Positions 56,253-60,155 of a stretch of DNA of 64,000 nucleotides are shown here, one piece after another (within the stretch, counting starts at the first letter, position 1; the number at the start of each line of letters is the position of its first letter). This DNA comes from Clostridiales bacterium. GTDB taxonomy: Bacteria; Bacillota; Clostridia; Peptostreptococcales; Anaerovoracaceae. The stretch lies in NCBI GenBank assembly GCA_012513435.1, contig JAAZCE010000011.1, forward strand, positions 62,001-126,000, written 5' to 3'. The notes below the pieces were generated by a model. It was not told the origin of the DNA, searched no databases, and saw only the letters and a list, made by a program, of their open reading frames with translations. A program made the translations under genes and the position numbers.

Positions 56253-56423
56253 AAGGAGTGTATCTTTATGAAAGAAAGAGTACATACGCAAAATGATTTA
56301 ATTGCTGCAATCAAAAATAATTATCAAAGCATTTGCACAATACAGATATAAGTAGAATTTATAAGATATAAATGATAAAATAAGCTTATAATAATATATT
56401 TTTTTATGTATAAAGGGGTTTAT

Positions 56424-59400
56424 ATGAGCTTAAAGATACTGCACTTATCAGATCTACATATTGGAGAAAACCACAAAGAGGCAATTCCAATAAAAGATTT
56501 AGCATATAAAATTGTTTCTAGTTTAGATGGAAAAATTCCGGAAGCCATTATAGTAACAGGTGATATTTTTGATTATACGGCATTAGAGAGTGAAAAAAAG
56601 GATGAGTTAATTAAAGAGGCAATAAATTTTTTTGAAAAACTAATCGAACTTATTAATAATGGAACAATTACTCTTACAAAGGATACTACTTTTTTTGTGC
56701 CAGGGAATCATGAAGTGGCACAAAAAAACGCTATTTCAAATGATGGTATACGATATCAAATTTATGAGGAGTTCTTAACACTATTTTATCAAGACAACAT
56801 ACCTAAGTTTTACGATAATGAAACTTGGTCTGTGTTTTCCATATTTGAAGAAAAAGGCGTTATGTTGTTAGGCTTTAATTCTGCGAATATTGAAACAAAT
56901 GATAAAAATGAAATAAAAACATTTGGTGCAATATCAGAAAAACAACTATATATACAATTACAGAAAGCAAAAGCGATAAGTAATATTGAAGAATATGTTT
57001 GTATTGCGTTTTTACATCATCATTTCTATTTAATGGATGAGCGTAATAAAGATGAACTCGATAGCGCTACGTTACATAATAGTGAAGGATTTTTAAATAT
57101 ATTATGTAAATTCAATACAATTGCAATATTACATGGACATAAACATTCTTCAAGTAATAGAAGAATGAACATAGATACTAGTATTGAAACTGAAGACATG
57201 ATGACAACTGTTCTAGGGTGTGGTAGTACTGATAAAGGTGATACGTTAGTAAATAGTTTTAACTTTATAGAAGTTTATAGTTTGAATAACTCTTATGATT
57301 TAAAATATCAAGAATTTGAATATAAAAATAGTTCTTTCTATGCAAAACAAGAAATAAGAATACCAGTAAAATCTACAAATAATGCAAAGATTAATTTGGA
57401 TTTTGTTTTGAAAGAAAACCCCGATTTTGAACAAAGATATAAACAATTGAGGACAATTGATACCTCAACTCTTATTCGTGAATTTTATGATATGATAAAT
57501 TATACTATATTTCGCTTGTCTTCTTCTGCCGAAGAAATTAAAGAAGATAATAAAGTAGTATATTATATTTTAGCTGCGATACACTATCAGGCAGATAGAG
57601 AGAATAACTTTACATTTTACGGGGAAATTGAACAGTTTTTTAGAGAAATTTTGAATATTGATTTTTCTGAGAAGATGAGTGAATTCATAATTTCTAAATT
57701 GCAAGCTGTGAGTAGCATTTACGATATTCATGACTTTTACAAAGTAATAATGGATGATAATTTAAGCTTAAAGCAGAGCAGATATATTGTTTATTTTGTT
57801 ATAACGTTATTTTTAACGAAATGCTATACAATCTTAAAATATAACCCTGATAATTTTGTTGAAGATTTTATAAGTAGTAAAGTTCCTTTTTCTTATAACC
57901 TAGATAAATTAAAAAAGAATATCGAAGGCGCTATGATTTCATTTGATATTAATGAGGAAAAGAGAGCATTAGAGTTAGAAGTTACTTGTAAAACAGCTGA
58001 AGCACATAAAGTAATAAGCCTTATTATTAAAGAATTTGAATTGATTTTAGCAGAGCTGGAACAAGATTTTGCACGATTTGGGTTCAGAGTTTACTACATA
58101 TTGCCAATGCTACCTACTTTTAAAAAGGGGCGGCAGGATTGTCTAGAGAGTCATATATTTTCAGCTTATATACCTAAATTGATACCGCTGTTAGCCGGAA
58201 GGCAAATATACTCTGAGCAAGAAGCCTTTACGCGGGAATTGCTACAAAACTCTATAGATGCAATCAACTTAAGAGTAAAAATGGATTCTAATTTTGCAAA
58301 GAATCAAGGTAAAATAGAATTATTTATTGGAACATATAAAAATCAAAATTATTTCCAAATCATAGATAATGGAATTGGCATGGACAGATACGTTATGGAA
58401 AGATATTTAACAACCATAGGTAGAAGCTTCTATAAAAGTTCTGACTTTAATAGATTAGATGCAGAATACGATCCTATTAGCCAGTTTGGAATTGGCTTTT
58501 TATCTTGTTTCATGATGGGAAAAAGAGTAGTGGTTGAGTCTCGCTATTATAGTGAAGGCGTTATAAACGGACACTCTTTAGATATTCCTAATTTTGATGG
58601 ATGTTTTTTTATAGAGAATAAAGAAAAATTAGAAGTCGGAACAAAGGTTACTGTCTATGAAAATGAAGAAAGAAAGCCTTTAGATAAGAACTTTGGCTTT
58701 CAACCTTTAAAAACCTATATTGAGAAAACAATAATAGATGTGCCATTTGACATTTGGTTAAATAATCAACTTTTTGTGGAGAAACAAAAGTATAAGAAAA
58801 TGATAGAAAGTAATTGCAAAGACAAAAAATTATGTTTTTTCATACCAATTAAAGATAGTGAATATATTTTTGATGGGAAAACGCTTCCAAAAGACTACTT
58901 TTATGGTATATATTTTTATAAAGAAGATGGGGGATTGCTGAACGAAAAAAATCATACAAAGGTGCTTTGTGCGGGTATTAGAGTTAGAGAAAGTAATAAT
59001 TTTCATATGTTTAAAGCATTACAATATCCTAAATATTTTAATGTTTATGCGAATTTTCCAAGTAGCACAGTCTCATTAAATGTATCGAGAGAAACCATAT
59101 CAGACATTAATATACCAAGCCACCAAATAGAAACTGAATTAAAGGAACAGATTTATAGTTATGTGGATTCTCCATACGGAAAGCAGCTGACGTTTGGGGT
59201 GTATTCGCATATTGGTTTGGAAGATTATAGCGCCACAAATATTCATTTTATGATGGATGGGTCTAATGTTTTATTGAAATATGATGAATTGGATATAAAT
59301 GACACAAAACGCGTTACAATAGAAACGATTAACTTTTTATTTAAAAAAATATTAAAGGTAGAGCATAAGATAAAGTATGATATAGATTTGGAAATTAATG

Positions 59401-60155
59401 GTTACACCAACAGCACATTTTATATTTTAATTGATACTATAAAAAGTATTTTGACAGAATTTGAATTGAAAAATATAGACAATAAACCCAAAACAGTACA
59501 TGAGGTTAAGCCATCATGTGTAACCGATGAACATTTGAATAAAATAAAAGATAACGCTCGCCATAAACATGCTAAAATAAATGATTATAAAAAAGAGTTG
59601 GAAAAAAAGAATGCTTCTTTTAAAAAAGTGATAACAATGATTCTAGATAGAGCAACGGGTTATGCTGACTATATTGCGAATAAAAAACAGAAGACTGGTG
59701 CATTAAGGGAATGTGCAATGATGATATATGATATTTTTGAAGAAATAAAAACATTAAGTAGTGATGATTGGAATAAAAACACGTCCGAAATTCAAACTTA
59801 TGAGAAATTAATTAAACGATTAAATGATGCACAGACATTACAGAATTTAGAGGGGAATTTAAAAGGCAATTTTGACCATATAAAAATAGATTTAGCTTTT
59901 GCCAACAAACTGTTTGAAAGTAATGAAAAGGCCGCAAAGATGATACACGGCACAATAATACCTTTTTACATGGTTACATTGATATGGTGGTCTATACAAC
60001 TGAAACCTTCCGTTAATTATTTTGACCTTCTTGAGATATTTTGGCATACACTATATAGCAGCAAGTTATTAACAGCTCATATATTTTCTTTGGAAGATTT
60101 ACAGAAAGGAATAGCTTTAGACTTTGGATCAATACTGGATTTTATTGAAAAATAG
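56424..60155 (+). CDS. Metallophosphoesterase + GHKL (HSP90-like) ATPase fusion, putative defence protein
   Basis: MPE motifs SDLHIG, TGDIFD, PGNHE, FLHHHF, LHGHKH; GHKL motifs FTRELLQNSIDAI, IIDNGIGM, QFGIGFLSCFM. Start at 56424 or 56406. Confidence 0.8.
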   Translation: MSLKILHLSDLHIGENHKEAIPIKDLAYKIVSSLDGKIPEAIIVTGDIFDYTALESEKKDELIKEAINFFEKLIELINNGTITLTKDTTFFVPGNHEVAQKNAISNDGIRYQIYEEFLTLFYQDNIPKFYDNETWSVFSIFEEKGVMLLGFNSANIETNDKNEIKTFGAISEKQLYIQLQKAKAISNIEEYVCIAFLHHHFYLMDERNKDELDSATLHNSEGFLNILCKFNTIAILHGHKHSSSNRRMNIDTSIETEDMMTTVLGCGSTDKGDTLVNSFNFIEVYSLNNSYDLKYQEFEYKNSSFYAKQEIRIPVKSTNNAKINLDFVLKENPDFEQRYKQLRTIDTSTLIREFYDMINYTIFRLSSSAEEIKEDNKVVYYILAAIHYQADRENNFTFYGEIEQFFREILNIDFSEKMSEFIISKLQAVSSIYDIHDFYKVIMDDNLSLKQSRYIVYFVITLFLTKCYTILKYNPDNFVEDFISSKVPFSYNLDKLKKNIEGAMISFDINEEKRALELEVTCKTAEAHKVISLIIKEFELILAELEQDFARFGFRVYYILPMLPTFKKGRQDCLESHIFSAYIPKLIPLLAGRQIYSEQEAFTRELLQNSIDAINLRVKMDSNFAKNQGKIELFIGTYKNQNYFQIIDNGIGMDRYVMERYLTTIGRSFYKSSDFNRLDAEYDPISQFGIGFLSCFMMGKRVVVESRYYSEGVINGHSLDIPNFDGCFFIENKEKLEVGTKVTVYENEERKPLDKNFGFQPLKTYIEKTIIDVPFDIWLNNQLFVEKQKYKKMIESNCKDKKLCFFIPIKDSEYIFDGKTLPKDYFYGIYFYKEDGGLLNEKNHTKVLCAGIRVRESNNFHMFKALQYPKYFNVYANFPSSTVSLNVSRETISDINIPSHQIETELKEQIYSYVDSPYGKQLTFGVYSHIGLEDYSATNIHFMMDGSNVLLKYDELDINDTKRVTIETINFLFKKILKVEHKIKYDIDLEINGYTNSTFYILIDTIKSILTEFELKNIDNKPKTVHEVKPSCVTDEHLNKIKDNARHKHAKINDYKKELEKKNASFKKVITMILDRATGYADYIANKKQKTGALRECAMMIYDIFEEIKTLSSDDWNKNTSEIQTYEKLIKRLNDAQTLQNLEGNLKGNFDHIKIDLAFANKLFESNEKAAKMIHGTIIPFYMVTLIWWSIQLKPSVNYFDLLEIFWHTLYSSKLLTAHIFSLEDLQKGIALDFGSILDFIEK

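What the first reader, a model, noticed from the sequence alone, without database searches (positions are those of the whole stretch)
56406..60155. 1249-aa metallophosphoesterase + GHKL/HSP90-like ATPase fusion as terminal cargo: candidate undescribed defence protein
Seen: a complete set of calcineurin-like phosphoesterase motifs at the N-terminus and an intact Bergerat-fold N/G1/G2 set (ELLQNSID, DNGIGM, QFGIGF) in the middle, followed by a long uncharacterised C-terminal region. It sits alone between tnpC and the ICE right end, the usual cargo slot of Tn554-type elements. Such a nuclease/phosphatase effector coupled to an ATP-dependent conformational switch would fit a single-gene abortive-infection system; I do not recognise a named system with this architecture.
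Basis: partly seen in the sequence, partly recalled or inferred. Interest (0 to 1): 0.82.

Follow-up and report, generated by a model that had tools for sequence, protein, structure and literature searches.

The report
Phosphoesterase fused to HSP90-type switch
A mobile element in a Clostridia-like bacterium carries one large gene that joins an enzyme related to proven anti-virus enzymes to a chaperone-type ATP-driven switch, and some of its relatives sit among known anti-virus genes, so it is probably an undescribed single-protein bacterial defence against phages.

Summary
The gene is real: 1243 aa (start most likely 56424, not 56406). It has an intact metallophosphoesterase (MPE), a roughly 290-aa linker, and an HSP90-type ATPase that includes the middle domain with its catalytic arginine. 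A divergent C-terminal tail of about 320 aa follows. About 80 retrieved full-length homologues share this architecture; in a 34-member alignment every metal ligand, Bergerat-fold residue and the catalytic Arg is invariant. The family is rare (2 further carriers in about 1,380 genomes searched), spread over several phyla and often on mobile elements. One relative lies between complete Gabija genes and a PD-Lambda-4_A homologue; another lies beside a PDC-M62 pair. The MPE is a below-cutoff relative of DS-9A, whose MPE is required for phage defence; DS-8 is an MPE-NACHT protein. PADLOC has no model for it. The same HSP90 core is also fused to HD-CE and SIR2 domains, and related MPEs are fused to a STAND NTPase. 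Best reading: a single-protein STAND-like defence in which HSP90 replaces NACHT as the switch. This is a new variant of a known kind. The enzyme substrate, the trigger and phage protection itself are untested.

The parts
56424..60155 (+). MPE-HSP90 gene, 1243 aa (56406 is the upstream alternative ATG, 1249 aa)
   Evidence: open frame; start from AAAGGGG upstream and homologue starts; GC 28-30% against about 43% in the host flanks
56430..57149 (+). metallophosphoesterase domain (residues 9-248), all seven metal ligands present
   Evidence: Pfam; NCBIfam DS9_1_antiphage residues 10-276 E 5.6e-20; invariance; fold
57258..58130 (+). linker region (about residues 285-575), beta part then helical domain; length 287-313 aa in all but one of 34 homologues; 501-575 strongly conserved and shared in part with the SIR2-HSP90 protein
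58134..58766 (+). HSP90 N-terminal ATPase domain (about 577-787), N, G1 and G2 boxes intact
58767..59195 (+). HSP90 middle domain (about 788-930) with LNVSRE motif and invariant catalytic-type R895 (59088-59090)
59196..60152 (+). C-terminal tail (about 931-1249): divergent, helical, low model confidence except the extreme end; putative sensor
   Evidence: pairwise identity mostly 5-21% against 48-67% at 501-750; pLDDT mostly 35-60
60241..60263 (+). terminator-like hairpin with T run after the gene
   Evidence: 3 found in the region against 0.9 expected
51604..56252 (+). ICE integration module: three tyrosine recombinases (51604-52704, 52716-54434, 54415-55893) and DUF6262 'tnpC' (55884-56252)
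19200..60353 (.). whole ICE, inserted in a cpaF-like gene (halves 18312-about 19199 and about 60354-60648; ends known to within a few bases)
   Evidence: in-frame join of the flanks restores the CpaF/VirB11 motif; conjugation genes

Best explanation
It is most likely a phage-defence protein that works like a STAND/NLR-type immune protein, with an HSP90-type ATPase in place of NACHT. Shown: the domains, intact active sites, family conservation, mobile and defence-island context, and module swapping. Inferred: in uninfected cells the HSP90 N and middle domains hold the protein in an open state. A phage-derived or infection-induced ligand is bound by the fast-diverging C-terminal tail. ATP-dependent N-domain closure and dimerisation then bring the two N-terminal phosphoesterases together or uncover them. 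The activated MPE hydrolyses a nucleotide, cyclic nucleotide or nucleic-acid phosphodiester and stops phage replication, possibly at the cost of the cell.
For: The MPE of every member scanned matches DS9_1_antiphage (E 3e-16 to 3e-31) better than SbcD or CpdA. In DS-8 and DS-9 mutation of MPE catalytic residues abolishes defence, and DS-8 also needs its NACHT ATPase (PMC13092281). All catalytic residues of both enzymes are invariant. Models: MPE+linker pLDDT 86, best experimental PDB folds Lmo2642, Rv0805 (cyclic-nucleotide PDE), SMPDL3A/B; HSP90 N+M resembles TRAP1/HtpG. Context: GajA (2.9e-194) - GajB (2.2e-226) - MPE-HSP90 - PD-Lambda-4_A (2.2e-85) in L041; PDC-M62A/B and an Avs2-like fragment in L076; PDC-S06 and a type II methyltransferase in L035. 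At E<=1e-25, 10 identified flanking ORFs of 86 against at most 4 of 113 control ORFs hit PADLOC models (Fisher P 0.047). Rare, multi-phylum, mobile-element carriage. Module swaps: the HSP90 core with HD-CE and SIR2; related MPE with nSTAND1/AAA (P0086, P0087).
Against: No phage assay exists. Several relatives sit in ordinary chromosomal surroundings (L044, L047). The defence-neighbour enrichment is modest, was counted from unequal flanks, and several PADLOC 'PDC' and methyltransferase models are not proven defence genes. The C-terminal tail is divergent, but no recognisable ligand-binding fold was found. The SIR2 fusion rests on a single protein cluster (P0160).
Confidence: 0.62

Rival explanations
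1. Counter-defence or ICE-protection factor: the MPE degrades cyclic-nucleotide alarm signals (CBASS, Thoeris or type III CRISPR signals) so that the ICE survives entry, with HSP90 as a folding or regulatory module.
For: Cargo on a conjugative element; fold nearest to cyclic-nucleotide phosphodiesterases Rv0805 and SMPDL3A.
Against: Relatives sit beside defence genes; the nearest functionally tested MPE kin, DS-9A and DS-8, are defensive; an anti-signal enzyme would not obviously need a 900-aa ATPase part; the same HSP90 core carries other effectors.
Confidence: 0.13
2. Specialised chaperone or stress protein: an HSP90 with a tethered phosphatase that dephosphorylates clients, loosely like the HSP90-PP5 pair of eukaryotes.
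For: True HSP90 N and middle domains with the catalytic Arg.
Against: The genome has its own full-length HtpG (C48, 722 bits), as do most of the other carriers tested; the family is rare and horizontally spread; the MPE is not of the PP5/PPP protein-phosphatase type by sequence.
Confidence: 0.1
3. Toxin-antitoxin-like addiction cargo of the ICE, not selected by phage.
For: ICE cargo; in two Bacteroidales-type loci a nucleotidyltransferase-HEPN gene precedes it.
Against: No antitoxin-like partner in this window or in most relatives; very large protein with an elaborate ATPase.
Confidence: 0.1

Closest known systems
DS-9 (DefensePredictor; NCBIfam NF053862 DS9_1_antiphage)
   Same: MPE domain homologous over its whole length (residues 10-276, E 5.6e-20; other members down to 2.6e-31); MPE catalytic residues required for DS-9 defence
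   Different: score 71.6 against a cut-off of 420; DS-9A is a 486-position model with the MPE at its C-terminus and works with a HAD phosphatase gene; here the MPE is N-terminal, fused to HSP90, and no HAD gene is adjacent
DS-8 (MPE-NACHT single protein, PMC13092281)
   Same: one protein with an MPE effector plus an ATP-dependent switch; both active sites needed in DS-8; SMPDL3A-like MPE fold
   Different: P-loop NACHT ATPase replaced by a Bergerat-fold HSP90 N+M ATPase; DS-8 sequence itself not compared here
HD-CE/HSP90 proteins (PF24391 + HATPase_c_3)
   Same: same HSP90 core downstream of an N-terminal enzyme-type domain (31-44% identity over the core); one lies on a predicted viral contig (L070)
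   Different: N-terminal HD-type domain instead of MPE, about 810-1,030 aa; no test of function was found in the papers searched
HtpG/TRAP1/HSP90 chaperones
   Same: N-domain ATP-binding boxes and middle-domain Arg; predicted fold of N+M
   Different: fused MPE and linker; no recognisable HSP90 C-terminal dimerisation domain; sporadic mobile distribution alongside a resident HtpG

Membership tests
DS-9 (NF053862) | DS-9A score over the equivalog cut-off of 420 | tested here: not met
   71.6 bits; relatives tested up to 109
DS-9 | adjacent HAD phosphatase gene | tested here: not met
   gene stands alone between DUF6262 and the ICE end
DS-8 | MPE fused to a NACHT P-loop NTPase | tested here: not met
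   no NACHT or P-loop family in the Pfam scan; HSP90-type ATPase instead
HSP90/HtpG chaperone | Bergerat-fold N-domain boxes | tested here: met
   invariant in 34 members
HSP90/HtpG chaperone | middle domain with catalytic Arg | tested here: met
   VSR[ED], R895 invariant; N+M fold match to TRAP1
HSP90/HtpG chaperone | C-terminal dimerisation domain | tested here: inconclusive
   tail low confidence and divergent; most fold matches cover about 380-430 columns only
HSP90/HtpG chaperone | full-length HtpG model score over 371 | tested here: not met
   82.9 bits
Known defence system in PADLOC-DB 2.0.0 | match to any model | tested here: not met
   only DruC1 E 0.024
STAND-like single-protein defence (works like) | N-terminal effector, central ATPase, variable C-terminal region | tested here: met
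   domain order and conservation profile; sensing itself not testable here
STAND-like single-protein defence (works like) | protection against phage | not testable with these tools
   needs a phage assay

The most novel reading that the evidence does not exclude
HSP90-type ATPases form a class of bacterial immune hubs parallel to STAND/NACHT proteins: one HSP90 N+M switch with swappable N-terminal effectors (MPE, HD-CE, SIR2) and a diversifying C-terminal sensor. This would be a direct role for an HSP90 fold as an immune receptor rather than as a helper chaperone.
Probability: 0.45. Interest if true: 0.85.

Novelty: new variant of a known kind. Interest (0 to 1): 0.66.

Why it matters
If confirmed, it shows that bacterial immunity uses HSP90 as the built-in switch of an immune receptor, with the same effector classes seen on NACHT/STAND proteins. 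In plants and animals HSP90 serves NLR receptors as a separate chaperone, so an HSP90-based receptor would be a striking counterpart. It would also add a third setting for the DS-8/DS-9 phosphoesterase, whose substrate is unknown, and so another handle for finding it.

Tried and rejected
Housekeeping HtpG: rejected, since the genome has its own HtpG. Chance motif matches: rejected by full-length homologues. Known PADLOC system: no match. Close copies on phage and plasmid records: none cover most of the protein; hits are HtpG-like or HD-CE-like pieces. The first genome-contig scan with the single protein found nothing; the alignment scan found 38 loci, about 15 of them MPE-HSP90. A PDB profile search of the MPE matched mainly the first metal-binding motifs of SbcD/Mre11, so it does not assign a substrate. 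Extra SIR2-HSP90 examples were sought and not found in 200 genomes, viral contigs or plasmids. Paper searches for an HSP90-based defence protein found none in the library searched; subscription papers and preprint servers were not covered.

Full report
OBSERVATION. The frame 56406-60155 is open and codes for an MPE (PF00149, residues 9-248, 48.7 bits against a cut-off of 21.5) and an HSP90-like ATPase (PF13589, 609-717, 32.7 against 25). NCBIfam places the ATPase with the HSP90 family proper (583-787, E 2.6e-27 and 1.8e-23) rather than with histidine kinases or gyrase. The true start is probably 56424: homologues start there, the database copy has 1243 aa, and AAAGGGG stands upstream of that ATG. 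The gene has GC 28-30%, lower than the ICE backbone and far below the host flanks of about 43%, and ends with a terminator-like hairpin at 60241-60263.

FAMILY. The first search gave 38 full-length or nearly full-length relatives at 25-36% identity over the alignment. After two more searches, 82 retrieved proteins (the query and its database copy included) had the MPE-HSP90 order and at least 1100 aa. In a 34-member alignment the seven metal ligands of the MPE, the N, G1 and G2 boxes and R895 of the HSP90 middle domain (VSR[ED]) are invariant. Pairwise identity is 34-47% in the MPE from residue 51, 48-67% across 501-750, and mostly 5-21% after residue 900. So both enzymes are under strong constraint, while the tail of about 320 aa is not. 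The tail is long in all members, which is the pattern expected of a ligand-binding part in an arms race, though simple lack of constraint would look similar.

STRUCTURE. AlphaFold2 models: MPE plus linker, mean pLDDT 86; HSP90 part, mean 70, with N and middle domains mostly 75-95 and the tail mostly 35-60. Fold search: the MPE is nearest to a modelled YydB, then Lmo2642, the cyclic-nucleotide phosphodiesterase Rv0805 and SMPDL3A/B. The HSP90 part is nearest to TRAP1 N+M domains. R895 matches the catalytic-loop Arg of HSP90 (this assignment rests on established HSP90 knowledge), so the ATPase looks catalytically complete.

SURROUNDINGS IN THE WINDOW. Joining 18312-about 19199 to about 60354-60648 restores a CpaF/VirB11 protein in frame. 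The stretch between is a 41-kb ICE with relaxase-, VirD4-like and VirB4-like genes (read by eye), three tyrosine recombinases and DUF6262. MPE-HSP90 is the only gene between DUF6262 and the right end.

SURROUNDINGS OF RELATIVES. L041 (Tissierellales): GajA, GajB, MPE-HSP90, PD-Lambda-4_A in a row on one strand. L076 (a genome of the same order as the Parabacteroides carrier): an Avs2-like fragment, PDC-M62A/B and mobilisation genes; a gene like the nucleotidyltransferase-HEPN gene of L046 precedes it, 33 bases away. L046 (Dysgonomonas): the same arrangement with mobilisation genes. L042 (Parabacteroides): mobilisation gene and tyrosine integrase. L035: RloC-like PDC-S06 and a type II methyltransferase. 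L037 and L038: insertion sequences nearby. L044 and L047: ordinary chromosomal neighbours. Control: of 113 ORFs from 14 arbitrary 20-kb windows of the same contigs, at most 4 hit PADLOC at E<=1e-25, against 10 identified by name among 86 flanking ORFs; Fisher P 0.047. This is suggestive, not strong: some of these models cover genes that are not proven defence genes, and flanks are unequal. The family is rare: besides the index genomes, 2 of about 1,380 genomes searched carry it.

MODULES. The MPE of every family member scanned matches the NCBIfam model of DS-9A, an anti-phage phosphoesterase, far better than SbcD or CpdA but well below its cut-off. DS-8 and DS-9 were shown to defend E. coli in an MPE-dependent way, and DS-8 also needs its NACHT ATPase (PMC13092281). 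In a search seeded with the MPE alone, nearly all hits were MPE-HSP90; P0086 and P0087 couple a related MPE to nSTAND1/AAA domains, and P0085 appears by eye to couple it to a CHAT-type domain. In a search seeded with the HSP90 core, the next relatives carry HD-CE (PF24391) and, in P0160, SIR2. P0160 residues 13-284 match the SIR2-fold protein FAM118B (E 1.4e-11 to 2.1e-11), and P0160 aligns to the window protein across 528-928 (E 2e-32). So effector and switch are exchanged independently, as in STAND systems.

MECHANISM. Shown: architecture, intact active sites, context, exchange of modules. Inferred: tail senses, HSP90 closure switches, MPE acts. A nucleotide or cyclic nucleotide is the more likely substrate from the fold matches, but this is weak because MPE folds match one another broadly. 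Rivals (ICE counter-defence, chaperone-phosphatase, addiction module) are less well supported but not excluded.

NOVELTY. Not in PADLOC, below the cut-offs of all NCBIfam models, and not found in the paper library. DS-8 already shows an MPE with an ATPase switch, and HD-CE/HSP90 proteins are in Pfam, so this is a new variant of a known kind; the HSP90-hub idea would be more.

Noticed in passing
L038:5860-6130; proteins P0120, P0076, P0116, P0072, P0005, P0091 (C-terminal tails): Several relatives carry short-period repeats of different sequence (RDFE, RFEKEFS, LYRNL, VELDVSE, MDMARA types) at roughly the same place in the tail; in L038 it is a 12-bp DNA repeat with 22.6 copies in frame. The window copy has none. 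Possibly a length-variable hypermutable segment.
   Followed up: partly
window 51604-56252: ICE integration module with three consecutive tyrosine recombinases plus DUF6262, inserted at a conserved CpaF/VirB11 motif (VQAL|NTGHSG). Whether such elements target this site generally was not tested.
   Followed up: partly
L046:5302-6207 and L076:11871-12755: A nucleotidyltransferase-HEPN gene lies immediately upstream of MPE-HSP90 in two Bacteroidales-type loci; possible second component or neutraliser.
   Followed up: no
P0160 (metagenomic protein): SIR2 domain fused to an HSP90 N+M core, 1145 aa; single cluster, no context available.
   Followed up: partly
L050-L053, L055, L056, L058, L059, L063, L064: Mainly Desulfobacterota-type loci encode an HSP90-like protein with another N-terminal region of about 270-350 aa before the N box, unlike MPE by eye; not identified.
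   Followed up: no
L045:8003-9928: Archaeal (Methanimicrococcus MAG) HSP90 part lacking the MPE, next to genes that look viral or plasmid-like; may be a broken copy.
   Followed up: no
window 13380-17711: 1443-aa ORF with many repeated units (NLPEGVTAxYxxN...AGxYxAxA type), surface-protein-like, outside the ICE.
   Followed up: no
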